Source: Pseudomonas leptonychotis (GTDB lineage Bacteria > Pseudomonadota > Gammaproteobacteria > Pseudomonadales > Pseudomonadaceae). From it: a stretch of 64,000 bases of DNA. Location: positions 2,232,001-2,296,000 of the forward strand of contig NZ_RFLV01000001.1 in assembly GCF_004920405.1 (NCBI RefSeq), written 5' to 3'. Position numbers and translations under genes: made by a program. How positions within the stretch are numbered: position 1 is the first letter of the stretch; each line of letters opens with the position of its first letter. The notes beneath the pieces were generated by a model that worked only from the letters and a program-made list of their open reading frames with translations, had not been told where the DNA came from and ran no database searches. Shown one piece after another: positions 28,259 through 40,234 of this stretch.

Positions 28259-29344
28259 ATGTCTTTCCGACCGAACAGCAAAACAGGTAATGACGGCATT
28301 GCTGACCTCGCAGATATGCAGGACGTCGGCCAGCGCTCGCTGGTGCGGATGATCTTTGCGTCCACCGGGCTGACCCTTGGAGTGTTCTGCGCCCTGCAAT
28401 TTATGGCCGGGAATTACCTACTCGCCAGTTTCGAACTGGTTGCAACGGTGGTGGTGCTGTGGGGTGCCTGGCGCATCCCTCGGGTACGCAACCTGTTGCC
28501 CTGGATCTACCTCTACCTGCTGCCTACCTTTAGCTTTCTGGTGTACATCATCATTGTCCCCCAGGCATCCAAAACGGCTTTTGTCTGGCTTTACAGCATC
28601 CCGGTACTTTCTTATCTGTTGCTTGGGCGCAGGCGCGGCAGTCAACTGGCGCTACCGTTTGTCGTTGGTGCTTGTCTGCTTTATCTGCAGACCTATTCAA
28701 TTCCGGTGGATACCAGAGGGTTGATCGATCTGGGTAACGCGGTTTTCTGCGGGTTGCTGATCATTGTTTTTGTGCATTTTTATGAAACCCGCCGCGCCTC
28801 TGCTTATCAACAACTTGAACGCATGGCCCGTACGGACGCACTGACAGGCGTAGCCAGCCGCGGCAGCTTCCAACAAAGCCTGGAACAGAGTATCCGTGAG
28901 GCCGAACGCAGCCATGCCAAATTGGTGCTGGTGATTCTGGATGTCGATCACTTCAAAATGGTGAATGACCAGTATGGCCACGAAGCCGGCGACCAGGCGT
29001 TACGGCATATATGCAACAGCTTGAGCCAGCGATTACGCATTACCGACACCCTGGGTCGCTTGGGTGGTGAGGAGTTCGGCCTGCTGCTGCGCAACACCGA
29101 CGGCGAGGGTGCCGAGCCGCTAGTGGAGGTCTTGCGCGCGCAATTGTGCAGTCAGCCGATGCTTTATGGCTCGCAACCGATCCGTTTGTCAGCCACCTTC
29201 GGTTTGGCCGAGTGGCCCACCGATGGACGCACCGCCGAGCAGCTTTACCGCTGTGCGGATCAGCACTTGTATCGCGGTAAAGCGCTAGGCCGTAATCGGC
29301 TGGTTGGCCGCAGCATGTCTGAGGTTAGGGTTAGCGACTATTAG
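28259..29344 (+). CDS. membrane-bound diguanylate cyclase
   Basis: The 361-residue protein has six hydrophobic segments in its first ~180 residues and a GGDEF domain from about residue 190 (ARTDALTGVASRGSFQQSLE, DVDHFKMVNDQYGHEAGD, then GRLGGEEFGLLL). The GGEEF active site is intact, so c-di-GMP synthesis is expected. The membrane part resembles the 6-transmembrane sensor of many Pseudomonas cyclases (for example GcbA/SadC-like layouts) but has no named ligand. The 363 bp upstream show no recognisable gene, and there is no clear ribosome site before the ATG, so the start is uncertain. This is the last chromosomal gene before the island. Confidence 0.9.
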   Translation: MSFRPNSKTGNDGIADLADMQDVGQRSLVRMIFASTGLTLGVFCALQFMAGNYLLASFELVATVVVLWGAWRIPRVRNLLPWIYLYLLPTFSFLVYIIIVPQASKTAFVWLYSIPVLSYLLLGRRRGSQLALPFVVGACLLYLQTYSIPVDTRGLIDLGNAVFCGLLIIVFVHFYETRRASAYQQLERMARTDALTGVASRGSFQQSLEQSIREAERSHAKLVLVILDVDHFKMVNDQYGHEAGDQALRHICNSLSQRLRITDTLGRLGGEEFGLLLRNTDGEGAEPLVEVLRAQLCSQPMLYGSQPIRLSATFGLAEWPTDGRTAEQLYRCADQHLYRGKALGRNRLVGRSMSEVRVSDY

Positions 29345-29585
29345 GTAGGCGTGATCCGGCATCGATCACGCACGTCTGCTGCGGTGTTAACACTCACGGG
29401 CTCCCCCTAACGCATCGATAAGCCAGCAACGCGTGTCGCCGTAATGCTCGGCATTGCTAAATGTGCACGCCATTGAAGTGCATCACCGCGATCTACAACT
29501 ACCCGAACCCCTGATCGTGCAGGGCTGGAGATCACCCTCTGGCTGCCGCGAACTCAGGGCTGGCGTGTAGCCAAAATAAGGCAGA

Positions 29586-29661
29586 AAAAAGCCGCGCAGT
29601 GCGCGGCTTTGGAGTTGGTGGGCCCACACGGACTCGAACCGTGGACCAAAGGATTATGAGT
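29586..29661. repeat. left attachment-site repeat (tRNA 3' fragment plus terminator)
   Basis: These 76 bp are identical to 40128-40203. They consist of the tRNA terminator hairpin (29586-29611) and 46 nt of the tRNA 3' end as far as the anticodon loop (29616-29661), read on the minus strand. Sequence beyond the repeat diverges on both sides. This is the expected attL/attR layout of an element integrated at a tRNA 3' end. Confidence 0.88.
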
Positions 29662-29668
29662 TGCCTAG

Positions 29669-29857
29669 AAACGCTGCAAACCCAGTGAAATCGTGCGTAG
29701 CTTAGCGCAGGTACAGTTAGCTGAAAGTAGCGTGGTTACTGGTGTTGAGCGTAATTTGGCGAAATGGGTAGAAGCTGGGCACTGTACCGTCAACGTACCG
29801 CTTTCTCGTACTGTGAAGCGGCCAAGCATGAGCCGCTTCCTGAGTTTGGATGAGTAA
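29669..29857 (+). other. short open frame next to the left att site, possible gene remnant
   Basis: An open frame follows a stop at 29666 and ends at TAA 29857; a GTG at 29693 would give 54 residues. It reads like ordinary protein (QLAESSVVTGVERNLAKWVE) but I recognise no family and see no ribosome site. It could be the tail of a lost recombinase or another gene cut by the insertion. An open frame of 69 codons also exists on the other strand, so this is weak. The rest of the 29345-29890 gap holds only the att repeat. Confidence 0.25.
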
Positions 29858-29890
29858 CGTCTTATGAGTCTCACCAGGATAAACCTAAAT

Positions 29891-32815
29891 TTAAGAGAGC
29901 TCTTCCGCTAGGCGGAATAACGCAATAGAGGGGCTTCCCTGCTCGAAATAATCAATCACGCTTTTGTACTCATCACTAACTTTGAATTGCCGCATAGTCG
30001 GTTTTTTAGGGTCTTTATAGTTTTTTAATACACCCTTCTCGAGCAGGTGGGGCAGGAAGTTCACCGCAGATAGTTTCTTTCTTACTTCCTCTTGTTTTCT
30101 TGGGTAGAAATTACCTCGCTGGTAGAATAGTTTAAATACCTTTTCTAGTTCTGTAAGTACGGCCTCTTTATTCTCTGCGGCTTCTTCCTCTTTTTCTGTT
30201 AAAAGATGCTGTATCTGCGTGAGGTCGCAGGTGCTAGAGAAAAGGCTGTTATGTAGTTTTATTGTTACGCCGCTTCTAGGGTTTATGTCTTTAAATTGCG
30301 AGTTCTCAAATTTTGTACCCTCGTTCATTTGGCACTCCCAGAAATATTCATAATTGTCGAAAGTGCAATCTCGCAAAACTCTGTCTTTGAAGTCGAATGT
30401 GGGTTTTATAGATGAGTTGCCAAATATGTCTATTAGGGAAATGCCTACTAATTCGTTGCTTTTCAAGAATAGTTTTTCAATTAGCTCTGTTCTGGTGTGA
30501 GTGCTTGATTGGCTGTTGTCTGATTTTTGGAGTAGGCAAAGTAGCAAAGAAACAATCGATGATATTAAAGTATTGGGATTTTCATAGCTTGCTGCAGACT
30601 CTATTACTTCAATGCAAAACAATACAAGGTCGTCGTGCATTTCTATTCTTTCGCATACCGACTCAGTGAAGCTGCTGTCATATTTTAAATAGCCAGATAT
30701 AACTCTGGCTGTTTGCTCGTCAAGTGCTGTTATATCTCTCTGCTTGAAAAAATAAACGAGGTGGAGTGCGGCAAAGTAGACATCAAATACATCGTATCTG
30801 AAATGAATTCCGTTATCAGAGCACACAAGTAGGGTGTGGCCTTTAATCTTTTCTATTAGTGCGTTGTCAGGGGCGGTGACGATTTTTTGAAGTTCCTGCT
30901 TTATATCGTAAAGATCTACGCCGTTGTCTTTGCTTATGGCTATTCGAATGAAAAGCTCAATCTGCTGGTCGACTGTTAGTCCTCCGAGTTTTATTATCTC
31001 TCGGTCGCACACTTGCGCTATTAAGAAATCAACATGATTTTCGGTTGATAAATATCGGCTTGCGAATTGTTTTTTTAAATTGATGTCTTCAGTTCTAGAA
31101 TTTATTAGGTATCCAATCATGTCTAGAAGAAAAGGAATATAGAAGAGCTCAGTGGTGCCTTGTTTTGTTCTGGTTTCAATTGCTAGTTTGTCAGCTATAA
31201 GCATGGCATTGGTAATGCGCTTCTTATCACCTTTTAGTTTTTGATTAAAAAAATCTTGTGCTAAGTCGGCGTTGAAGGCTTTGAGTACTATTTCAGGGAG
31301 AAGTATTTTTTTGCCGACTTCATTCCAGAAGTGGTCCCTGCATGTAATTAATACTTTCGTTTTGTGCAGGTCTGAAGAGTATTCTTGGAAAATTGAGGTT
31401 ATAAAGGCTTGTACATCGAAGCGATTCCCAAGCTTTGCTATTACCTCATCTATGCCGTCTAGGACAACAGTTAGGCTTCCGTTATCTATAGATAACTTAA
31501 GAAGATCCTTGTTGAATCTAGATGAGTCGTTGCCATCCACGTCCATCTGTGCCCTGTAAAAATCAAATACGTCACTGATTTTTGAATTTCTAGATAGCTC
31601 GTTAATTATCTCTTTAGAATCAATAAAAAGAAGACCTTGGTCATTTTCTTCGGTATATATTTGATCTAGAAATTGTTTGGCGAGTGTGGTTTTCCCTATT
31701 CCACCGTGCCCGCTAACAATAAATAAAGGCTCATTCTCTGTGTTGTACCATTCTTTAAGCTTTTCAAGTGCAGGGAGATCGCGTTCTTCCTCTAAATCAT
31801 ATAGGCCATTCACATAAATTGGTAAGTTAAACTTTTCATATGGCAGCATGCAGTCTTTGTACAAGAAATTACATCCGAATTCGTCTACGAAATAGACAAA
31901 CTTTGTACCGAATAATCTTGATATATTTTCTTTTCGCTTTCCAATGTCTTTTAAATTTGGTCTGTCAATCAAGATAATTGATGATTCCGGTTTTGAAATG
32001 TAGTTTTTGCTTTTTATCTCACCGACTGTCTTTCCTTGATTTGAACTGTCGTGTATGTAGATAAATTCTTTCCCGCCATCAAATCCATCTGTTAACTTGT
32101 AAACTTCGTAAATGATACTGTCTTTCCAGTTTTTTACTCGCACTGGATATTTCTCTACCAGGGAAAGGCTAGAGTTTTTGTCCATGAATAGTTGGACTGT
32201 TTTCTCAATGCTTCTTTCTGTTTGTTGCTCTTCTGGTTCGGGTTGAGTGAATCTTGCAAAAAAATCAGATCGTCTAAGTGATTCAAATTCTTCTTTAAGA
32301 TTCTGGTACTCGGATGGAGTTGCTGTTCTTACCTCATCCGTTTTCTGCCCTTTTCGTATTAGTACTCCGCCCTCATCAATGTGCCTTGTTTTTGTTTTTA
32401 GCCCGGTTTTTAGTTCGGTTATATATCCCTTCACGGGTAGTTCGATTATAAGTAGTGTGCAGCCTTCGTGAACTGTGGTTTCAATGTTTATATCGGTTAA
32501 GGAGGGGGTTGTATATTTTTCCAGTCGACGAATTAGGTCTTTTTTGAAGGCTGTGAGGTTTTGTAGTTGCTTTATTTTTGAAATTCCAATATTAAAAGGT
32601 TTTCTTTCTGTCTCTGAATAGCCAATAACTAGGTGGCGATTTCTGCCTGTATGGCCTAGGTATCCGTTAGATAGCGAAATGATGTCTTTTATTAACTCTC
32701 CCCACAGGTCGGCCATATCTGTGGCGGGGGTAGTATCATCCCAGTACCATTGTCTTTTGAACTCGAGGGTAGGAGACTCTTGCTCAGTAATTAATTCAAT
32801 GATGCTCGCTTTCAT
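29891..32815 (-). CDS. Schlafen/AlbA-domain NACHT NTPase, probable anti-phage sensor
   Basis: The 974-residue protein has an N-terminal Schlafen AlbA-2-like domain (about 1-165, with SPTLEFKRQW, the DIISLSNGYLG helix and HLVIGYSE), a linker region (about 200-340) of unknown fold, and a NACHT-type STAND NTPase with Walker A GHGGIGKTTLAK (369-380) and Walker B LTVVLDGIDEV (448-458). A long helical C-terminus follows, with a pentapeptide-like stretch (DRVLRDCTFDNYEYFWE). STAND proteins of this plan act in bacterial immunity (Avs, bNACHT); the AlbA part may be the effector. The gene is strikingly AT-rich and its codon use is unlike every neighbour, a sign of transfer. It lies 47 bp downstream of an Mrr-like gene. 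Function in defence is inferred. Confidence 0.85.
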   Translation of the reverse strand: MKASIIELITEQESPTLEFKRQWYWDDTTPATDMADLWGELIKDIISLSNGYLGHTGRNRHLVIGYSETERKPFNIGISKIKQLQNLTAFKKDLIRRLEKYTTPSLTDINIETTVHEGCTLLIIELPVKGYITELKTGLKTKTRHIDEGGVLIRKGQKTDEVRTATPSEYQNLKEEFESLRRSDFFARFTQPEPEEQQTERSIEKTVQLFMDKNSSLSLVEKYPVRVKNWKDSIIYEVYKLTDGFDGGKEFIYIHDSSNQGKTVGEIKSKNYISKPESSIILIDRPNLKDIGKRKENISRLFGTKFVYFVDEFGCNFLYKDCMLPYEKFNLPIYVNGLYDLEEERDLPALEKLKEWYNTENEPLFIVSGHGGIGKTTLAKQFLDQIYTEENDQGLLFIDSKEIINELSRNSKISDVFDFYRAQMDVDGNDSSRFNKDLLKLSIDNGSLTVVLDGIDEVIAKLGNRFDVQAFITSIFQEYSSDLHKTKVLITCRDHFWNEVGKKILLPEIVLKAFNADLAQDFFNQKLKGDKKRITNAMLIADKLAIETRTKQGTTELFYIPFLLDMIGYLINSRTEDINLKKQFASRYLSTENHVDFLIAQVCDREIIKLGGLTVDQQIELFIRIAISKDNGVDLYDIKQELQKIVTAPDNALIEKIKGHTLLVCSDNGIHFRYDVFDVYFAALHLVYFFKQRDITALDEQTARVISGYLKYDSSFTESVCERIEMHDDLVLFCIEVIESAASYENPNTLISSIVSLLLCLLQKSDNSQSSTHTRTELIEKLFLKSNELVGISLIDIFGNSSIKPTFDFKDRVLRDCTFDNYEYFWECQMNEGTKFENSQFKDINPRSGVTIKLHNSLFSSTCDLTQIQHLLTEKEEEAAENKEAVLTELEKVFKLFYQRGNFYPRKQEEVRKKLSAVNFLPHLLEKGVLKNYKDPKKPTMRQFKVSDEYKSVIDYFEQGSPSIALFRLAEELS

Positions 32816-32862
32816 TGTTAAGGCCTGTGAGTTAATTTGATATTGGCTTTCTTAGTTTTTAA

Positions 32863-33783
32863 TTATTCTTCGTCGAAGTAGTCGCTATCCAGCTTGGGCA
32901 ACCTCAGTAGGCGTGAAGTCACACCTACCTCGTGATCCATCATCAGGTTGACCAGTCGGTTGCCATCCACCAGAACCATGCCTTCCACCGAGCGGGAAAA
33001 GTCGACTGCCTGTGAGGTGAAGCCTGAGGTGGTAATAAACACGCCACGCTTGGCTTTCTGCCCTGCAAGAGCTCCATAGAAGGCCTGCAGCTCTGGCCTG
33101 CCAACTGTTCCCTGCCAGCGTTTGGCCTGGACGTAGACTTTTTCCAAGCCGAGCTTGTCTAGCGAGATCACCCCGTCGATCCCACCGTCGCCGCTGCCGC
33201 CGACGCGCTGCAGATCGTTGCGGCTAGCGCCGTAGCCAAGGCTGTGCAGCACATCCAGCACGATGACTTCAAAGCGGTTGGGGCTGACTTGCAGGAGGTT
33301 ATCCAGCAGGTCTGCAGCCGTTGCTTCGCGCAGTTCACGCAAAGCCTGCTCCAGACGATCATCAGGGCTAACAGTGGCTGAGATGAGCGCCGCTGTAGGC
33401 TGCTCTTGCCCATCGAGTGGGACAGCATCTGTCGGGGTCTTGAGTTTTACATTCATAAAGCCAATGGCGAGCTGTTCGATCTTATTCGCAGTCAGAGGGG
33501 CGGGGTGCTGGACGGCATAGGTAATGCCAGCGTCAGTCAGCTTCCAATACCCACGCTTGGCGCTGCTGGACAGGCCGGCGCGCTTGAGGCGGTCATGGGC
33601 CCAGCCTGCACGGTTCTTGTACGTGGCCTGGCCGCTGGCAATTAGCTCTTGGCGCTGTGCTTCCGACAGGTTCAGCGCATCAGCAGCTGCTTCATGGGCG
33701 TCACGTGCTGTCGCGCCTTCGGGCGTGGCGGCCAGGTAGCGCAGGATCGGCTCAATAAACTGGTCGTAGGTAGGGACGGGCAT
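32863..33783 (-). CDS. Mrr-like restriction endonuclease
   Basis: The 306-residue protein has an N-terminal winged-helix Mrr domain (about 1-95, YDQFIEPILRYLAATPEG to GYWKLTDAG) and a C-terminal PD-(D/E)XK nuclease with RFEVIVLDVLHSLGY, the acidic Asp203 in GSGDGGIDGVI and Gln219-Ala-Lys221 in YVQAKRWQG. Mrr proteins cut DNA carrying foreign methylation (type IV restriction) and do not need a partner methylase; none is present here. The ATG at 33783 is chosen because upstream codons run into the NERD gene end. GC is that of the core genome, unlike the NACHT gene that follows. Confidence 0.9.
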   Translation of the reverse strand: MPVPTYDQFIEPILRYLAATPEGATARDAHEAAADALNLSEAQRQELIASGQATYKNRAGWAHDRLKRAGLSSSAKRGYWKLTDAGITYAVQHPAPLTANKIEQLAIGFMNVKLKTPTDAVPLDGQEQPTAALISATVSPDDRLEQALRELREATAADLLDNLLQVSPNRFEVIVLDVLHSLGYGASRNDLQRVGGSGDGGIDGVISLDKLGLEKVYVQAKRWQGTVGRPELQAFYGALAGQKAKRGVFITTSGFTSQAVDFSRSVEGMVLVDGNRLVNLMMDHEVGVTSRLLRLPKLDSDYFDEE

Positions 33784-33808
33784 TGCGACTCCAGGCGCAG
33801 GATTGATG

Positions 33809-34591
33809 TTAGGGCCGCGTGCTAAAGGCTCTGCATGGTTTTGCATTTGGGGAAGGTTGAGCAGCCCCAGAATTGTTGGCCGACATTGGCCCTGTTTTAC
33901 GGATGCGAATAACCAGGGCGCTGCCGCATTTCGGGCATTGCCGCTCGGCTGCCGGATCGCTACGGCGTTTAAGGTTTTGTACATGCTCGCGGTGGGTGGC
34001 GAGCGTCGGGGCGCGGCGGCCGGTTTGCAGGGCGTGCAGCATGGCGTCGACTTCAGCCTCGCTAAACACTAGCTGCTGGAATGACTTGATATAGCGGATA
34101 AAGCCGATGCCCTGCGTCACGTTGGCCGGCACTTCGGTTTTGAAGGTGCTGCCGCCAACGAAGGTAATGACCGAGTGCAGGTGCTCGGGATTAACGCCAA
34201 GGGTGGCTTCCAGGGCTTTGAGGTGTTTGTAGTTCTGGCGTAGCGGGTTCTGGAATTTGAAGGTGCGCTTGTAGAGCTTTTGCGTCCACTGCGCTTGGTT
34301 CTCACTGCCGAAGATCCAGCCGCTCATGCTCTTCGTTTCCAGCACGAAGATGCCGTAGGGCGAGAGGAATACATGGTCGATCTGCGTGGTGCCGTCTGGC
34401 GTGTTTAGCGTGACGTTGTGCAGGCGGCGGTAGGTCTGTTTATCCAGCTGGAAGTGAGCAAACAGCTGCACCAGAAGCTCGCCGATATAGCCTTTGGCCC
34501 AAGGCGACTTGAACAGCGTGATCAGCAGCATGAGTGGAATAAACCAGCTCAACATGCCCCAGACCTGCGCGATGACGGGGGTGAAGTCCAT
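33809..34591 (-). CDS. NERD-domain nuclease-like protein with frameshifted zinc finger
   Basis: The protein starts with a membrane segment (about 8-27), then a NERD domain with the PD-(D/E)XK-like core QIDHVFLSPYGIFVLETKSM, and ends with the first half of a topoisomerase-type C4 zinc finger (CPKCGSALVIR). The last ~24 residues read nonsense. In the +1 frame from about 33890 the sequence continues NVGQQFWGCSTFPKC..., the missing half of the finger, and ends at a stop at 33822-33824. So a single base has been lost in the GGCCC run near 33888-33893, or is missing from the assembly. 260 residues as read. NERD proteins are linked to DNA processing and often occur in defence islands. Confidence 0.8.
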   Translation of the reverse strand: MDFTPVIAQVWGMLSWFIPLMLLITLFKSPWAKGYIGELLVQLFAHFQLDKQTYRRLHNVTLNTPDGTTQIDHVFLSPYGIFVLETKSMSGWIFGSENQAQWTQKLYKRTFKFQNPLRQNYKHLKALEATLGVNPEHLHSVITFVGGSTFKTEVPANVTQGIGFIRYIKSFQQLVFSEAEVDAMLHALQTGRRAPTLATHREHVQNLKRRSDPAAERQCPKCGSALVIRIRKTGPMSANNSGAAQPSPNAKPCRAFSTRP

Positions 34592-34658
34592 TTCCCAACC
34601 TTCCAGTAATCCAGGGTTAACCGGATAGTACCGAAAGTAGGCGCAGGTAAACGAACGT

Positions 34659-35015
34659 TTATTTAAGTTGTGCTAGAGCTGTTTCGATGTCCCGCCATTC
34701 TGGCCTTAGCCTGTAGCGCAGATAGGCGATGAAGGCTTTGTCGCGCAGGCGCCTGAGTGAAGAAGACCTTCGCGCTTCATGGATGCGGTCGATAGTCTCG
34801 GCAAGCCAAGCGGGGTCGAACGCTGTCCAGATGGGAGGAATGGCTGCCTGCAGGTTTGAGTAGCACGCAGGTGCGACGTCCACGAAGAAGGCAGCCTCGA
34901 TGACTGAGCGCTCATAGCCGCCAAGACTTTTGGCGACCTGGGCATAGTCGACGACGTTGTCTACGAATACGTCTGACAGCGCTGCCCAAAGCCTGACCTG
35001 TTCCTGTCTTGTCAA
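34659..35015 (-). CDS. DUF7079-like small protein
   Basis: The 118-residue protein begins MTRQEQVRLWAALSDVFVDN and has the VAPACYSNL and WLAETIDRIHEAR segments; I recall this pattern as the DUF7079 family, of unknown function, but cannot verify it. It is helical, with no signal peptide or membrane segment. It lies alone between the NERD gene and the Fic gene, same strand, with ~70-100 bp gaps. An immunity or accessory role is possible from the context only. Confidence 0.6.
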   Translation of the reverse strand: MTRQEQVRLWAALSDVFVDNVVDYAQVAKSLGGYERSVIEAAFFVDVAPACYSNLQAAIPPIWTAFDPAWLAETIDRIHEARRSSSLRRLRDKAFIAYLRYRLRPEWRDIETALAQLK

Positions 35016-35120
35016 AATACTTCTCGCTGTGAGAGTTCTTCGAGTTCGTTATCCCGCGCGACTGCAGCCAAGCTATTCCGCTTAGGGTGCACGCCTGCCT
35101 GTTTAGGTTGCCTGGCTGTC

Positions 35121-36254
35121 TTACCCGCTCACGGCATAATTAACGTGGTAACGGGTGCTGCGCCCACCGCCCGGCAGCCGCACGATGTAGCCCTTTTCCA
35201 GCAGGTCGCCTAGATGACGGGTAGCGGTGGCTTTAGACACCTTGGCGACGGCTTGATATTGGGCAGCGCTGATACCGTTCTCAAAACCGTTATCACCGCC
35301 ATCGAGCAGGCGATTAAGCACTTTGATTTGTTCGGCTGACAGGGCATGGCTGCGGTGCGTGTGCCAGAAGCGCGCCTTAGCCAACACGCGGTCGATGCGG
35401 GCAAGTGCCTGTTCCAGGCTGTTGAGTAATGTGCCGAGAAACCACTGCAGCCAGGCGGTGACATCCAGCATGCCTTTCTGGCTGGACTCGAGGATGCGGT
35501 AATAGCCGGCGCGGTCGTCGAGGATGCTGGCGGACATGGCGTAAAAGCGGATGGCCTGCTGTTCGCCCTGGGCTAATGCCAAGTCGGTGATGGCGCGAGT
35601 AAGGCGGCCGTTACCGTCATCGAAAGGGTGCAGGGTGACGAACCAGAAATGGGCTATGCCAGCGCGCAGCAATGGATCAAGGCTGGCATCGCTGCGGCTG
35701 TTCTCGAACCAGGTGAGGAAGTCGGCCAGTTGCTTTTCCAGCCCGTCGCGTGGCGGGGCTTCAAAGTGCACGATGGGGCGGTCAACTCGGCCGGAAACAA
35801 CCTGCATGGGCTCTTCGCCGCGCAATGTACCGATGCGTAGCGGGCGGGCCAAAAGGTTGTCGTCGCTGGGGAACAGCCAGCGGTGCCAGCCATATAGCCG
35901 CTCCAGATCTAACGGTTGTTGGTGCACGCGAGTGGCATCGAGTAAAAGTTCTGCCAGCCCCTCGGAACGTGAAGTGGTGCGACCTTCCTCGTTCAATCCC
36001 AAGCGCCGAGCCAGAGAGGAACGCACCGAGCCGACATTCAGTTGCTCACCCTCGATGGCAGATGAGGTGACGATGTTCTGCAGCATGGCATCCAGGCTGC
36101 TCTGCACCTCAGTGTCACTACCAACAGCGCCGAGCATGCCGAGCAAGCGCCCCTGTGTCTGTGCACAGGCACGCAGCAGCGGGGCAAGCGGCTCGGCTTG
36201 CCAGCTGAAGTGCGGCCAGTTGGGCTGCTGCCAGATCCAGAAGGGTTCATTCAT
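35121..36254 (-). CDS. Fic-domain AMP transferase with C-terminal winged helix
   Basis: The 377-residue protein has the complete Fic motif HPFDDGNGRLTRA with catalytic His209, and an inhibitory helix motif SSAIEGE near residues 64-70 (S-x3-E-G) in its N-terminal part, so it is a class II, self-inhibited Fic. An N-terminal Fic_N/DUF4172-like region starts WIWQQPNWPHFSW. The C-terminal ~70 residues form a winged helix (YQAVAKVSKATATRHLGDLLEKGYIVR), suggesting DNA binding. It would transfer AMP from ATP to a target protein, unknown here. A dense set of GAGCCGA palindromes lies directly upstream and may be its own binding site. Confidence 0.92.
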   Translation of the reverse strand: MNEPFWIWQQPNWPHFSWQAEPLAPLLRACAQTQGRLLGMLGAVGSDTEVQSSLDAMLQNIVTSSAIEGEQLNVGSVRSSLARRLGLNEEGRTTSRSEGLAELLLDATRVHQQPLDLERLYGWHRWLFPSDDNLLARPLRIGTLRGEEPMQVVSGRVDRPIVHFEAPPRDGLEKQLADFLTWFENSRSDASLDPLLRAGIAHFWFVTLHPFDDGNGRLTRAITDLALAQGEQQAIRFYAMSASILDDRAGYYRILESSQKGMLDVTAWLQWFLGTLLNSLEQALARIDRVLAKARFWHTHRSHALSAEQIKVLNRLLDGGDNGFENGISAAQYQAVAKVSKATATRHLGDLLEKGYIVRLPGGGRSTRYHVNYAVSG

Positions 36255-36270
36255 GGGGCTTGCTCACGGT

Positions 36271-36331
36271 GAGCCGATTAGCGGCTCTATTCGGCTCATT
36301 AGATGAGCCGATAATGCCGGCTATTCGGCTC
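36271..36331. promoter_or_regulatory. palindromic operator region of the fic gene
   Basis: Four exact GAGCCGA or TCGGCTC words (36271, 36291, 36305, 36325) and one partial word lie within 61 bp. The central pair forms a perfect inverted repeat with 9-bp arms, TCGGCTCAT and ATGAGCCGA, separated by TAG. The first word is 17 bp before the fic ATG. Confidence 0.6.
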
Positions 36332-36443
36332 ACTGTCTAATCTTCAGCGGGGTTGCTTGGTTGAGGTGCTGATTTTTCAGGCGCGCGTTGAGCTGACGTG
36401 AACGTCAAGAATCATGCTCAGTCTCTCCCCGAACGTTGCTCGC

Positions 36444-37097
36444 TCAGTAAGTATTCAATTGCTCTTTAGTGGCCGGTCTTACAGTCAGCTCGTCGGCGGG
36501 CTGCAGGCGGAGCCAGCCCAGTACTCGTGACTGCTCGAGATACCAGTGGCCTTCTCGTTGGGTAAGCCCCAGGTCTTCTCTGGAGCTGCCAAAGGGGCCA
36601 GGGTTTTGCTGGGCGATTTGCAGGGTTTCGGTGCCTACGCTGGCGATAATCGCGACGTGACCGAAGCGGTTGAGTAGTGAGGGGGCGAATACCAGCAAGT
36701 CTTCTGCTTGCGGTTGCTCGGCGCTGCCGTTGCGAAACTGCAGCATCGCCCGTTTGGCGTTCAAACTGCCGTCGCTGAGGGTTGGATCGAAGAAGTCTTT
36801 GGCGTGCCCGTAGGTGTCCGGCATGCGGTGGCCATGGCGTTCGAAGTAGTAGCGTTTGACGAACTCCACGCACTGATAGCGCAGGCCTAGGTTGTAACCG
36901 TCCTGGCTCAGGTTACGGCCCTGCACCGTATTGACCCCGCCGTTGTAGTAAATCGCCACGCCATTCAGCTCATCAAGTTGTTCGCCCACGGCATGCTGGC
37001 TGTTGGGGTTGATACGGGTAACGGCTGCATAAGTCGCCAGAGCGATCAAAGGCAGCAGCACACAGCTAGCGAGGAGGGTGATTCGACGTTTGTTCAT
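36444..37097 (-). CDS. membrane-anchored CHAP amidase
   Basis: The 217-residue protein has an N-terminal membrane anchor or uncleaved signal (about 6-26) followed by a CHAP cysteine amidase domain with Cys76 in YQCVEFVKRYY and His147 in FGHVAII. The wording GVAIYYNGG...QCVEF resembles the amidase half of glutathionylspermidine synthetase. It would act on peptidoglycan peptides or amides in the periplasm. The start at 37097 is chosen for the anchor; a longer frame upstream reads as non-protein. It is the last gene of the PAAR cassette, so it may be a secreted effector, an immunity-linked enzyme or cargo; the anchor argues against a free effector. Confidence 0.82.
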   Translation of the reverse strand: MNKRRITLLASCVLLPLIALATYAAVTRINPNSQHAVGEQLDELNGVAIYYNGGVNTVQGRNLSQDGYNLGLRYQCVEFVKRYYFERHGHRMPDTYGHAKDFFDPTLSDGSLNAKRAMLQFRNGSAEQPQAEDLLVFAPSLLNRFGHVAIIASVGTETLQIAQQNPGPFGSSREDLGLTQREGHWYLEQSRVLGWLRLQPADELTVRPATKEQLNTY

Positions 37098-37170
37098 CGT
37101 GAGGGCTTTATAAGTTGGAGGGCGCGGCTGTGGTTTTTTGGCTGGATCGTTAGCGCGGCGCAGAGCGGCA

Positions 37171-37602
37171 TTAATCCGTGTTTGGGTCTGCTGCCGTTGA
37201 GTGCCCGTTATCGCTGGCATCGAGCCTGTAAAGCCTTTCTATATCTTGCCCCGCGCATTGGGTGCCATAGGTACGGCCATAGACCAGTACGTCGTAGCGT
37301 CCGGCCTTGGTGGGAATACCCTGAATCACGCCATGCTTTTCTCTTTCGATATGGGTTAACTCCAAGCCATTGGGCAGTGGCGTGTCTGGAGCTACCAGCA
37401 ACTGGCTTATGGGGGTACTGGCGTTGATCACATCTATACGTATGCGATAGGGGACTCCCACGACTGCAGCAGGAAGCTCATTGGGCAGAAGTTCCGGCGC
37501 AGGCCTTATGGCGCAGCCGACCACGACATTACCGAACATGAGGACTTCACAGCCTGTTAGCTGAATGGCCATACAGAGAGTGAGCAGCGTATTTCGCAGC
37601 AT
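37171..37602 (-). CDS. small lipoprotein, putative Ig-like domain
   Basis: The 143-residue protein starts with a lipoprotein signal ending in the lipobox LTGC (Cys18). The mature part (AAVVGVPYRIRIDVINASTPISQLLVAPDTPLPNGLELT...GVIQGIPTKAGRYDVLVYG) has the pattern of a putative Ig (He_PIG) domain. It is probably anchored to the outer or inner membrane facing the periplasm. Its place in a PAAR cassette makes a periplasmic immunity or accessory role possible. The start overlaps nothing and the gap to the next gene is 29 bp. Confidence 0.75.
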   Translation of the reverse strand: MLRNTLLTLCMAIQLTGCEVLMFGNVVVGCAIRPAPELLPNELPAAVVGVPYRIRIDVINASTPISQLLVAPDTPLPNGLELTHIEREKHGVIQGIPTKAGRYDVLVYGRTYGTQCAGQDIERLYRLDASDNGHSTAADPNTD

Positions 37603-37631
37603 GGTTGCGTTGTTCTTTACGGAGGAGGTGG

Positions 37632-38228
37632 TTAGCGCGATTTGCGTTCGAGTTCTGCTATTTCGGCAAAGGCTTTTCGATGCTCGGCTTGCGAGGCGTA
37701 GTCGCCGCTGATTTCCTTGGCATCTTTTCCGGTTAGGTCATTGCCAGTCAGCGCATCGCGCGCGAACAGGATGGCAAACTTCCGACCGTCCAATTCCAAG
37801 TAGAGGTAGTAGTAGTCTTCGGGCTTGTTGGGCTCGGCGAAGGCGCTGTAGGTATAGCGGATGCGATAGCTGAGATCGGGCGGGTTCAGTATCAGTGCCT
37901 GGGTATCTGTGTCTTCAAGGTAGCTGCTGTCGAAGGCTTCGGCCGCGGCATAGGGAAGCTCGGCCAATTGCTCGGGTTTAAACTGCCTGAGCTGGCTGCG
38001 TAGCATGGTGACATTGCTGGCTCCGCCGTCGGCCTCAATGTTGCGTGGTTTGTACATGCCACTAACAAACCACTGGCTGGCATCGAACATCTCTTCGACT
38101 TCGAAACCGCCGTAATACATCATGATTTTTTTAGGCATTTGGCTTTCCTTGGCATTCAGATAAAGCCCGGTCGCCAAGCTGGCGACCAGGGCAATGCTAC
38201 ATAGCAATAGCTTGTTCAAGCGCCTCAT
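37632..38228 (-). CDS. hypothetical protein, candidate immunity to the preceding effector
   Basis: The 198-residue protein has an N-terminal membrane segment (about 6-25) and a soluble, charged remainder rich in Tyr and Asp/Glu (YYYLYLELDGRKFAILFARD). I recognise no family. Its ATG overlaps the stop of the candidate effector gene as ATGA, the coupling typical of toxin-immunity pairs. An internal ATG (residue 31) would drop the membrane segment. Periplasmic orientation is likely. Confidence 0.65.
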   Translation of the reverse strand: MRRLNKLLLCSIALVASLATGLYLNAKESQMPKKIMMYYGGFEVEEMFDASQWFVSGMYKPRNIEADGGASNVTMLRSQLRQFKPEQLAELPYAAAEAFDSSYLEDTDTQALILNPPDLSYRIRYTYSAFAEPNKPEDYYYLYLELDGRKFAILFARDALTGNDLTGKDAKEISGDYASQAEHRKAFAEIAELERKSR

Positions 38229-39256
38229 AGTGGCTTGTATTCCCGCAGGGTGGCCGGCACCCCAGTGGGCGAGTCGCCTGCACGCACAGGGCGAACCGCC
38301 CCCTCAGCGTCCAGTGGGTAACCTATGGTTCGATCATTTCCATCGCGACTATTGGCATGGCGTACTAGGGCCTCATCCTGCGCGCTGGCAGTTCTGATCG
38401 GTGTCTGCGGCGCGGTTTCGTTAGGTAGTTGGGCGTTTGCGTCTTTACTGGTCTGTCGGTGCGCGGCTAGACGCCTCTGATAGTCGCTGAGTCGGCGTCT
38501 GTATGCCTTCATTGCTTGTGCGTCGGCTTTGGTTTTCTCCTGGGCATTGGCTAATCCTGCACGATCACTAGCATTGCCATAGGTCTGGTCATAATTGCTG
38601 CGCCGTGGGAATGCCCAAACAGAGGTCTGAGCGGTGTTGGCGATCAACTGCGCCAGGCTTTTCTCGTACAGCGGGTCTTCGTCCTCGCTGACGTGTACGT
38701 CGGCATGAATACCAAGGCCGGTACGGCAGGCGTAGGAGTGAATCTTGGCGCTTAGGTCGAACGCTTCAGGCTTGAGCATCTGAGCTTGAGCATCGCGCAT
38801 GCGGTAGCTGTCGGCCTTATCCAGCTCATAACCAAACTCGATGGTGCCAACCAGGCCGTGGGAGAAAAAGTCGAGCTGCTTGATCTCGCGCTTCTTGCTG
38901 ATGCGCAGGTTGATAAAGTCGAGTAGTTGGGCGATGGAGTCCAGTTCTCGGTACTTAGCGCCATAGCGCGTTTCAACCACGTCCTTTACGGCATCGAGCA
39001 GGGGGCGTTCGTAGTCTTCTGTGAAAATCAGAAAAATTCGTTGGGTTGCATCGTTAGCACTTGCGGGCGGATAGAGGCGAGTTTGCCGGATGCCCTGATT
39101 GATAAAGCGCATCTTGTTGCCTTTCTGCCCCCGAAGTTTTTCCATCAGGGTCATATGCGAGGCACCGACCACAGTAATGAAGTCGCGCTGTAGAGAAACA
39201 GGGATCTGTTGAATCGCGTGCTGGGAGCTGGTCTTGCCCTGGTGAGGTGCTGTCAT
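38225..39256 (-). CDS. candidate type VI effector with caspase/CHAT-like His-Cys dyad
   Basis: The 343-residue protein lies directly after a PAAR gene (11-bp gap). No family is certain. Residues 75-215 show alternating strands and helices with KQLDFFSHGLVGTIEFG (His133-Gly134) and KIHSYACRTGLG (Ala176-Cys177). A strand ending in H-G followed by a strand ending in A-C is the signature of clan CD peptidases (caspase, CHAT, gingipain). The C-terminus (240-343) is helical then Pro/Ala-rich. There is no signal peptide, consistent with T6SS delivery. The function is inferred from the motif and the context. Confidence 0.6.
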   Translation of the reverse strand: MTAPHQGKTSSQHAIQQIPVSLQRDFITVVGASHMTLMEKLRGQKGNKMRFINQGIRQTRLYPPASANDATQRIFLIFTEDYERPLLDAVKDVVETRYGAKYRELDSIAQLLDFINLRISKKREIKQLDFFSHGLVGTIEFGYELDKADSYRMRDAQAQMLKPEAFDLSAKIHSYACRTGLGIHADVHVSEDEDPLYEKSLAQLIANTAQTSVWAFPRRSNYDQTYGNASDRAGLANAQEKTKADAQAMKAYRRRLSDYQRRLAAHRQTSKDANAQLPNETAPQTPIRTASAQDEALVRHANSRDGNDRTIGYPLDAEGAVRPVRAGDSPTGVPATLREYKPL

Positions 39257-39267
39257 TGCATCTGTCC

Positions 39268-39795
39268 TTAGAAGCTAATGCCTTTTTGCTTGAGGTGGTT
39301 AGCGGCATCCCGACCCCAGCGAACGACCACAGATTGTGGGTCTTTGGTAAATACCCGCTCGGTATTGCCGTAGCCATTGGTGTAACCCACAAAGCGCTGG
39401 CCATCGTCGCACTCCACGCAGTAGAGCGCGTCCTCGACTGGCTGGCCGCTATTGCTGTCTATCAACTGGTACTGCTCGCTGTGCCTGGGCAGGATCTCTG
39501 GTGCGCTGAACGGCGCGCTGCCCGATTGAGTGCCGACCAGTACGTCGCCTGAGCCAGTGATGATGACCCCGCCATGGGCGGTGGCACTGCCCAGAAAGGC
39601 AATGGGCTTGCCATTGACCAAGATGCTGCCGATGCCTTCGGTGACCGCATCGCCACAGGCCGTACTGTCACCGACCCGCAGGGTGGGAAGGTTGTTGATC
39701 AGTACATCCGGCGAACCATTGGTGGTCGGGTTGGTGCCATGCCCAGGAATGGGGCACGCATTTAAATCGCTAAGGCGGGAGGCGGGTTTTGCCAT
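39268..39795 (-). CDS. PAAR-domain protein of a type VI secretion cassette
   Basis: The 175-residue protein has a PAAR domain at about 1-92 (PGHGTNPTTNGSPDVLINNLPTLRVGDSTACG...GSILVNGKPIAFLGSATAHGG), which caps the VgrG spike of the T6SS and carries effectors. A short C-terminal domain (about 105-175, QYQLIDSNSGQPVEDALYCVECDDGQ...) has the look of a small beta domain often found after PAAR and may bind the effector encoded next. No other T6SS structural genes are in the window, so it depends on a system encoded elsewhere. Confidence 0.9.
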   Translation of the reverse strand: MAKPASRLSDLNACPIPGHGTNPTTNGSPDVLINNLPTLRVGDSTACGDAVTEGIGSILVNGKPIAFLGSATAHGGVIITGSGDVLVGTQSGSAPFSAPEILPRHSEQYQLIDSNSGQPVEDALYCVECDDGQRFVGYTNGYGNTERVFTKDPQSVVVRWGRDAANHLKQKGISF

Positions 39796-40127
39796 GGCAG
39801 TCGTCCTTGTGCCGAATCATCAAGCATTCTGAGCTCCATGGGATTTTTCCGTTGTGGCTAAGTTCACCTTTCGCGGCTTAAACATTCTGCGTGCGGCAAG
39901 CGCGGCCTATCGACAGGCCTGCCACTCGTTCAGCGGAGGGAGGTGTTTCGGCGCGCATGGGCCACAGGTCAGCAATATGCGCACGCAATAGTTGCCCGGA
40001 AACTGCATTCGCCAATGACCGACCGCTACTTTAGTTGGACGCATCTTTCCCTGCTCCCAAACGGCACCGTACTGGATTTTCGCTTTCGAACTGTAGGGCT
40101 GGTCTAGCTGCTTTTCCTGCAGACATG
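39796..40127. other. right-end island junction without a recognised gene
   Basis: Between the PAAR gene and the right att repeat I see no integrase and no convincing gene. A minus-strand frame (39907-40191) runs into the tRNA and is therefore not credible in full, although its distal half (GHWRMQFPGNYCVRILLTCGPC) looks protein-like and may be a remnant. Confidence 0.4.
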
Positions 40128-40153
40128 AAAAAGCCGCGCAGTGCGCGGCTTTG
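40128..40153 (-). terminator. terminator of the tRNA gene
   Basis: On the minus strand AAAGCCGCGC and GCGCGGCTTT form a hairpin followed by T residues, directly after the CCA end. Confidence 0.85.
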
Positions 40154-40203
40154 GAGTTGGTGGGCCCACACGGACTCGAACCGTGGACCAAAGGATTATG
40201 AGT
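40128..40203. repeat. right attachment-site repeat
   Basis: This is the second copy of the 76-bp direct repeat found at 29586-29661. Here it is part of the intact tRNA gene and its terminator. Confidence 0.88.
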
Positions 40204-40234
40204 CCTCTGCTCTAACCAACTGAGCTATGGGCCC
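40158..40234 (-). tRNA. tRNA with CAU anticodon, most likely tRNA-Ile2
   Basis: The 77-nt gene folds as a standard cloverleaf with encoded CCA. The acceptor stem reads GGGCCCA, the anticodon loop CTCATAA. C4-G69 and C5-G68 pairs are those reported to be recognised by TilS in tRNA-Ile2, whereas elongator tRNA-Met of E. coli has U4 and A5. Automatic annotation often calls such genes tRNA-Met. It is the integration target of the island. Confidence 0.9.

What the first reader, a model, noticed from the sequence alone, without database searches (positions are those of the whole stretch)
29891..33783. Schlafen/AlbA-NACHT protein next to an Mrr-like restriction enzyme: candidate composite anti-phage system
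The 974-residue protein combines an AlbA-2-like N-terminus, an unassigned middle segment (200-340), an intact NACHT NTPase and a helical C-terminus. The gene before it encodes an Mrr-like nuclease with intact Asp-QxK. NACHT and AlbA proteins are known singly in defence; this arrangement, with an unknown middle domain, may be a new type in which the STAND sensor gates an AlbA effector. The two genes differ sharply in base composition, so they may also be independent neighbours.
Basis: partly seen in the sequence, partly recalled or inferred. Interest (0 to 1): 0.75.

Follow-up and report, generated by a model that had tools for sequence, protein, structure and literature searches.

The report
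NLR-like phage sensor with Schlafen effector
A horizontally acquired bacterial gene encodes a likely anti-virus switch, built like animal NLR immune receptors and carrying a Schlafen-type domain; the restriction enzyme beside it looks like a separate resident of the same exchangeable defence-gene slot.

Summary
Window 29891-32815 (-) encodes 974 aa: a Schlafen/AlbA_2 domain (1-190), a conserved unassigned middle domain (200-340), an intact NACHT/NLR-like module (about 319-768) and a C-terminal region. An intact Mrr gene lies 47 bp upstream.

AlbA_2-NACHT is a coherent full-length family. The same middle-NACHT-C core also carries TIR, cyclase, caspase, SMEK or nucleoside-phosphorylase N-termini, one phosphorylase form nesting inside the AlbA_2 clade, and AlbA_2 occurs on other STAND proteins. 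This supports "STAND sensor gates a swappable AlbA_2 effector". The Schlafen-like acidic triad is conserved. The gene has no constant neighbour, is AT-rich, and occurs in P2-like prophages, in L001 between gpA and portal, a published defence hotspot.

The Mrr pairing does not look like a system. No other locus examined has Mrr beside AlbA_2-NACHT. NERD-Mrr recurs in four relatives upstream of Gabija, DRT type 3 or other cargo, homology ending at the Mrr stop in three. AlbA_2-NACHT is cargo in that slot, inside an island flanked by tRNA-Met repeats.

Verdict: probable single-gene NLR-like anti-phage protein with a Schlafen-type nuclease; new variant of a known kind. Activity, target, trigger and middle-domain fold are not shown.

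The parts
29891..32815 (-). AlbA_2-NACHT protein, 974 aa (whole gene; probably the transferable unit)
   Evidence: family; DNA homology with G675 runs from the ATG to near the stop, window 32816 to 29927
32246..32815 (-). N-terminal Schlafen/AlbA_2 effector domain (residues 1-190) with acidic residues E13, E18, E68
   Evidence: PF04326 in 27 of 48 homologues; column counts; alignment A4; model
31796..32218 (-). Middle domain (residues about 200-340), shared with the other effector types, no Pfam family; alpha/beta in the model
30512..31861 (-). NACHT / NLR-like nucleotide-binding module with helical and winged-helix parts (about residues 319-768)
31685..31711 (-). Walker A, residues 369-377, lysine K375
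   Evidence: G369, G371, G372, G374, K375, T377 in 69 of 69 rows; position 376 T in 64, S in 5
31445..31471 (-). Walker B, residues 449-457 (D453, D456, E457)
   Evidence: 69 of 69 rows
29891..30511 (-). C-terminal region 769-974: strand-rich stretch about 788-842, then helices; candidate sensor (inference)
   Evidence: secondary structure; aligned across effector types
32863..33783 (-). Mrr-type (type IV) restriction enzyme; resident neighbour rather than partner
   Evidence: 91.5-96% identical copies after NERD in four other genomes with other cargo
33809..34591 (-). NERD-domain gene; anchor of the cargo slot (its last residues differ from relatives as if the frame had shifted within the zinc ribbon)
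   Evidence: PF08378 1.8e-30; homologues in 38 of 199 genus genomes, own included; C-termini compared
35121..36254 (-). Fic-family gene upstream of NERD; same order in G369 and, apparently broken, in G675
29579..29661 (.). Left att-like repeat: 3' part of tRNA-Met plus the stretch after it
   Evidence: 83 nt, 96% identical to 40121-40203
40121..40203 (.). Right copy of the att-like repeat, in the intact tRNA-Met (40158-40234, -)

Best explanation
A single-gene, NLR-like anti-phage protein. At rest the NACHT module holds the protein inactive with bound nucleotide. The C-terminal region senses infection. Nucleotide exchange lets the NACHT modules oligomerise, which brings the N-terminal AlbA_2 (Schlafen) domains together and switches on a metal-dependent nuclease, most likely an RNase acting on tRNA or other translation RNA, so that the infected cell stops making phage. 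The gene travels alone. In this genome it was placed as cargo behind a resident NERD-Mrr gene pair at a tRNA-Met integration site. SHOWN by calls: architecture, family, intact motifs, effector swapping, purifying selection, varied mobile settings, the cargo slot. INFERRED: oligomerisation and gating (from NLR/bNACHT proteins), nuclease activity (from the conserved acidic residues and the Schlafen/SAMD9L papers), RNA or tRNA as target, phage as trigger.
For: Full-length family: 110 of the 120 listed homologues (of 220 found) exceed 930 aa. AlbA_2 detected in 27 of 48, NACHT in 48 of 48. Acidic columns in 69 rows: E13 in 68 of 68 letters, E18 in 67 of 68 (one D), position 68 E in 64 and D in 5. 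SLFN13 uses E205/E210/D248 (PMC5862951 passages), SAMD9L E186/E198/D243 (PMC11221667 passages). N-terminal swaps on one core: TIR, cyclase, caspase, SMEK, PNP; PNP protein L012 nests in the AlbA_2 clade (24 rows, support 100/99). AlbA_2 with other NTPases in L021-L024. NLR-like fold: all 12 of the 50 listed chains with more than 300 aligned residues are NOD2, NLRC4 or NLRP3. P2-like prophage cargo: L001 lies between gpA and portal, the locus described as a defence hotspot in PMC9122126 (passages); L041-L043 also in P2-like order (by eye). AT-richer than flanks in 16 of 16 loci compared, two of them (L012, L017) with other effectors. The same slot holds Gabija, Lamassu, DRT3 and others in relatives.
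Confidence: 0.7

Rival explanations
1. Composite system: AlbA_2-NACHT works together with the adjacent Mrr enzyme (and perhaps NERD), for example the STAND protein controlling Mrr.
For: Co-directional genes with gaps of 47 and 25 bp. Mrr is intact.
Against: No Mrr found beside the gene in any other locus examined; the 86% identical homologue in G675 follows NERD directly without Mrr. NERD-Mrr stands before Gabija, DRT3, a PDC-S46 protein and a helicase-like protein. G+C 38.7 against 59.3%.
Confidence: 0.04
2. NERD and AlbA_2-NACHT form a functional pair in Pseudomonadaceae.
For: NERD is directly upstream in the own genome and in G675, the two carriers among 398 family genomes, at different integration sites.
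Against: A third Pseudomonas carrier, L010, shows no NERD beside the gene. NERD is followed by many unrelated genes in other genomes; by position, no other genome searched has NERD directly beside the gene. DNA homology breaks between NERD and the NACHT gene. The window NERD looks C-terminally altered.
Confidence: 0.08
3. The AlbA_2 domain is a nucleic-acid-binding sensor or silencer, not a nuclease; the protein acts as a STAND regulator or DNA sensor.
For: AlbA_2 was first proposed as DNA/RNA-binding in SAMD9 (PMC5445408 passages).
Against: Acidic residues kept in nearly all of 69 rows; the domain is exchanged at the same position for enzymes and TIR domains, where STAND effectors usually sit; SAMD9L needs the triad for activity (PMC11221667 passages).
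Confidence: 0.15
4. The effector is a nuclease but its target is DNA or bulk RNA rather than tRNA.
For: Target specificity cannot be read from sequence; NACHT proteins bNACHT25/32 carry DNase effectors (PMC12169576 passages).
Against: Characterised Schlafen and SAMD9 proteins cleave tRNA (PMC5862951 passages; PMC12851939 passages).
Confidence: 0.35

Closest known systems
bNACHT proteins (bacterial NLR-related; bNACHT25/32 with PD-(D/E)XK DNase effector)
   Same: N-terminal effector, central NACHT, C-terminal region taken as sensor; single gene
   Different: Effector is AlbA_2/Schlafen; an additional conserved middle domain; whether it falls in a named bNACHT clade was not tested (Kibby 2023 not held)
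SAMD9/SAMD9L family (AlbA_2 - SIR2-like - STAND - TPR - OB), including bacterial members
   Same: AlbA_2 plus a domain between it and a STAND-type NTPase; acidic residues of the Schlafen kind
   Different: Here the NTPase is NACHT; no SIR2, TPR or OB domain found by Pfam in this protein; middle domain about 140 aa, unassigned; no match to SAMD9 chains in the PDB by sequence
Bacterial Schlafens (preprint 10.1101/2025.07.24.666596, known only from its citation in PMC12839542; not held)
   Same: Schlafen domain in bacterial anti-phage defence, going by the title and the citing sentence
   Different: Content not seen; it may include this family
CbCash (PDB 9ylu, 9ylv, 9ylx)
   Same: Matches the N-terminal profile A4 at 1.5e-5 over profile positions 33-132
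   Different: 297 aa; only the name was seen, its function and other domains were not looked up
P2-prophage cos-proximal defence hotspot (PMC9122126, passages)
   Same: L001 carries the gene between gpA and portal
   Different: That paper treats E. coli mainly; its tables were not searched for AlbA_2-NACHT

Membership tests
STAND/NACHT (NLR-like) NTPase | NACHT domain over the curated cut-off with Walker A and B | tested here: met
   36.6 bits against cut-off 26.7; K375, D453, D456, E457 in 69 of 69
STAND/NACHT (NLR-like) NTPase | NLR-type arrangement of nucleotide-binding, helical and winged-helix parts | tested here: met
STAND/NACHT (NLR-like) NTPase | Nucleotide-dependent oligomerisation on activation | not testable with these tools
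   needs purified protein
Schlafen / AlbA_2 (PF04326) | Profile match | tested here: met
   27 of 48 homologues at E<=0.01, best 3.7e-11; not in the window protein alone
Schlafen / AlbA_2 nuclease | Three-carboxylate active site | tested here: inconclusive
   E13/E18/E68 conserved but the correspondence to SLFN13 E205/E210/D248 is by motif, not superposition
Schlafen / AlbA_2 nuclease | RNA cleavage | not testable with these tools
   bench assay needed
SAMD9 family | SIR2-like domain between AlbA_2 and NTPase | tested here: inconclusive
   no SIR2 Pfam hit in this protein or in 9 middle-domain pieces; the middle domain was not folded and searched alone
SAMD9 family | C-terminal TPR array and OB fold | tested here: inconclusive
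   no TPR or OB hit by Pfam in this protein; among the 25 families shown for 48 homologues one member has S1 at 0.0036 and none TPR. Not filed as a member
bNACHT (anti-phage) | Effector-NACHT-sensor single protein | tested here: met
   architecture; that the C-terminus senses is inference
bNACHT (anti-phage) | Protects against phage | not testable with these tools
   plaque assay needed
Type IV restriction enzyme Mrr (neighbour) | Mrr_N + Mrr_cat with Asp...QxK | tested here: met
   D and QAK visible in alignment A6
Composite AlbA_2-NACHT/Mrr system | Recurrent co-occurrence of the two genes | tested here: not met

The most novel reading that the evidence does not exclude
The family is a bacterial working counterpart of human SAMD9/SAMD9L: an NLR-type receptor that, on sensing phage, turns on a Schlafen tRNase to shut off translation. 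Its middle domain is a new universal adaptor between STAND sensor and effector that accepts at least six kinds of N-terminus (AlbA_2, TIR, cyclase+TIR, caspase, SMEK+TIR, nucleoside phosphorylase).
Probability: 0.35. Interest if true: 0.75.

Novelty: new variant of a known kind. Interest (0 to 1): 0.57.

Why it matters
It joins two animal antiviral modules, Schlafen/SAMD9-type domains and NLR-type receptors, in one bacterial gene whose effector is naturally exchanged, so effector gating can be tested by domain swaps that evolution already made. It also shows how a gene pair that looks like an operon can mislead: NERD-Mrr is a leader behind which unrelated defence systems are found, which offers a way to look for further defence genes in Pseudomonas.

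Tried and rejected
Composite with Mrr: rejected. Middle domain as an inactive restriction-endonuclease fold: the order of helices and strands in the model (H204-213, E225-229, E234-243, E248-254, H260-269, E280-283, H291-302, E307-309) resembles such folds as I recall them, but profile comparison with an Mrr_cat alignment of 8 sequences gave probability 0.2%, so it stays an idea. Pfam scan of 9 middle-domain pieces at E<=10: four single hits at 0.04-0.08 to unrelated families, five none; read as chance. Structure search of the whole model lists only NACHT/AAA-type matches; the N-terminal and middle domains were hardly tested by it, and absence there means nothing. A separate fold of the middle domain (alignment A7) could not be queued. 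Plasmid and phage collections hold no homologue at E<=1e-40 and 1e-20. Integrase in the island: four integrases from relatives gave only hits at E 0.23 and worse. No tandem repeats. Promoter and terminator scans near shuffled expectation, not used.

Paper searches for the same architecture: (Schlafen + NACHT + AlbA_2, 0 papers; AlbA_2 + NACHT, 1 paper, malaria), whose lists are capped (6 to 20 shown of up to 535). From titles and starts of abstracts, none listed describes a bacterial AlbA_2-NACHT protein; I read passages only of the papers cited with calls. PMC7159879 passages: no mention of Schlafen or AlbA. Not held: Kibby 2023 and the bacterial Schlafen preprint, either of which may already include this family.
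Full report
1. The thing itself. The ORF at 29891-32815 (-) is 974 aa. Pfam finds NACHT (365-526, 5.2e-9) and NPHP3_N (2e-9); the other listed families are P-loop families over the same stretch or weak (for example DehI 0.25 at 876-920), and none lies wholly before residue 340. A homology search gave 220 proteins at E<=1e-3 (120 listed); 110 of the 120 exceed 930 aa and most of these cover 98-100% of the query. In 48 of them scanned singly, NACHT is found in 48 and SLFN_AlbA_2 in 27 (best 3.7e-11). The window protein itself stays below detection for AlbA_2, so the AlbA_2 call rests on its relatives. In 69 aligned homologues K375, D453, D456 and E457 are in all 69; E13 in 68 of 68 letters, E18 in 67 of 68 with one D, position 68 acidic in 69 of 69. 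Between the window gene and the 86% identical gene of G675, pN is 0.079 and pS 0.779 (saturated): strong purifying selection.

3. Effector swapping. The middle-NACHT-C core recurs with other N-termini. L017 has a caspase (PF00656 2.4e-13), L012 a nucleoside phosphorylase (PF01048 3.9e-12), P0126 a nucleotide cyclase (PF00211 3.7e-13), P0131 SMEK (PF21941 7.6e-29), P0136 PF01048 1.4e-10. P0121 (the L020 protein), P0122, P0123 and P0125 list TIR families; P0124 is shorter and lists only NACHT. A TIR-like stretch after the cyclase and SMEK domains is my reading of the alignment. A search with the caspase protein's core found 172 relatives, 120 listed, about 95 of them with PF00656 by my count. 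In a tree of 39 cores the PNP protein L012 falls inside the AlbA_2 clade (24 rows, 100/99; beside P0110 at 94/77), so a replacement happened within the family. Long branches make the place of P0135, P0136 and P0131 unsure; P0136's middle domain shares only 8% identity with the window's, so its homology there is weak. Conversely, AlbA_2 is joined to other proteins in cyanobacteria (L021-L024); only L021 was scanned, AlbA_2 1.3e-9 and NB-ARC 9.4e-13. The middle domain goes with the core, not with AlbA_2.

4. Setting of homologues. The gene is rare: 2 of 369 genomes of the class (the second is a partial match at a contig end), 1 of 199 of the genus, 2 of 398 of the family, own genome included each time. 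I saw no constant neighbour (ORFs read by eye). Contexts include a type III restriction-like pair (L020, by eye), a SIR2 protein (L008; PF13289 5.3e-13), a Beta_protein (L010; PF14350), conjugative or phage-like genes, and, in two Psychrobacter genomes, apparent housekeeping genes. In viral contigs (six loci, of which L045 is the contig of L001 and L040 looks like L043) the gene lies in P2-like gene order in L001, L041, L042 and L043 but not evidently in L044. For L001 the flanks were tested: nickase phrog_91 and portal phrog_68, terminase, scaffold, capsid; the others are by eye. The interval between gpA and portal is the P2 hotspot of anti-phage systems (PMC9122126 passages); in L041 and L043 the gene lies elsewhere, among tail genes. 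The gene is AT-richer than its flanks in 16 of 16 loci compared.

5. Mrr. Mrr_cat occurs in 9 of 16 genomes or records searched, own included (L017's genome not held; G675 not in that search). Outside the own genome no hit lies, by contig and position, within the flanks held; contig numbers are not tied to names, so this is read from lengths and coordinates. The one doubtful contig end (L008) does not encode it. Window Mrr, NERD, DUF7079, Fic and CHAP found nothing beside homologues in L001-L026 by blastp, apart from Mrr in the own locus; some of these loci have little flank (L004, L015, L019, L026). NERD sits directly upstream only in the own genome and in G675.

6. The slot. DNA homology between window and G675 comes in three blocks: Fic 36298-35146, NERD 34593-33826, NACHT gene 32816-29927, the last starting at the ATG. 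Mrr is absent there, and the island lies beside guaA with a tyrosine integrase (genes named by eye). NERD homologues at E<=1e-60 occur in 38 of 199 genus genomes. I examined the downstream side in 24 of the 38: the own, G369, G381, G382 and 20 more. Mrr at 91.5-96% identity follows NERD in 4 of the 20 (L056, L057, L060, L072); DNA homology stops at the Mrr stop in three and at 32927 in L060, and L065 keeps a 27-residue remnant of the Mrr end. Behind NERD-Mrr come a helicase-like protein (PDC-S71 61 bits, PbeA 49 bits), Gabija (966 and 704 bits), DRT3 (468 and 693 bits), PDC-S46 (783 bits), and in the window AlbA_2-NACHT. Without Mrr, Lamassu, a methylase and an OLD/AriA-like ATPase follow NERD in L031, L034, L036. 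Of 15 of the 20 loci scanned with PADLOC at 1e-10, 10 had a defence match in the 5 kb and 5 did not (L053, L055, L059, L062, L064); L061, L067, L069, L070, L071 were not scanned. I chose which ORFs to scan. In L065 and L066 the match is on the other strand and not the first gene, and in L058 only the third gene was scanned. There was no random-gene control for the PADLOC rate.

7. The island. An 83-nt repeat (96%) at 29579-29661 and 40121-40203 covers the 3' part of tRNA-Met, 10,542 bp apart. Partial second copies near the intact tRNA occur in relatives, and in all seven that I fetched because one search showed them (G369, G371, G374, G380, G381, G382, G383). Their islands hold integrase-like ORFs in L032 and L034 (85% identical; by eye) and defence-like genes (Lamassu and type IIG in L031/L032, HamB-like in L035, PDC-S39 in L033). 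The G374 and G380 islands were not scanned. No integrase was found in the window island.

8. Mechanism. From bNACHT proteins (C-terminal sensor, NACHT switch, N-terminal effector; PMC12169576 passages), from Schlafen13 (three-carboxylate tRNase; PMC5862951 passages) and from SAMD9L (triad-dependent translation shut-off; PMC11221667 passages), the likely course is sensing, NACHT oligomerisation, AlbA_2 activation, RNA cleavage, arrest of translation. Each of these steps is inferred. SAMD9-family proteins already join AlbA_2 to a STAND-like NTPase and occur in bacteria, though many bacterial members lack AlbA_2 (PMC5445408 abstract and passages). What is distinct here is the NACHT core with its middle domain and its exchange of effectors.

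9. Verdict. Observation confirmed, with the lysine number corrected. STAND-gated AlbA_2 effector: supported by comparison, untested at the bench. Composite with Mrr: not supported. New variant of a known kind; the two most relevant publications could not be read, so it may already be listed somewhere.

Noticed in passing
window 32863-34591 and loci L053-L072, L031, L034, L036: A NERD gene (with or without Mrr) marks a slot in Pseudomonas behind which different defence systems stand (Gabija, Lamassu, DRT3, PDC-S46, others); 10 of 15 scanned loci of 20 fetched matched PADLOC.
   Followed up: partly
window 29579-40203: Island of about 10.5 kb between tRNA-Met repeats without a recognisable integrase; the same tRNA has partial second copies in relatives.
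   Followed up: partly
window 36444-39795: PAAR protein (PF05488 2.8e-15), a 343-aa protein with weak DUF4347 similarity, and a CHAP-domain protein on one strand: possibly a secretion-effector group sharing the island.
   Followed up: no
window 39704-39775 (-): Rfam P10 Pseudomonas sRNA match (49.7 bits, cut-off 37) lying inside the start of the PAAR ORF.
   Followed up: no
window 33809-33890: The NERD ORF ends differently from relatives, as if its zinc ribbon had shifted frame; relatives with the full ribbon exist.
   Followed up: partly
P0126, P0127: Nucleotide cyclase plus a TIR-like stretch (by eye) on the same middle-NACHT core, an unusual combination.
   Followed up: partly
window 28259-29344: MASE6-GGDEF diguanylate cyclase just outside the left repeat.
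   Followed up: no
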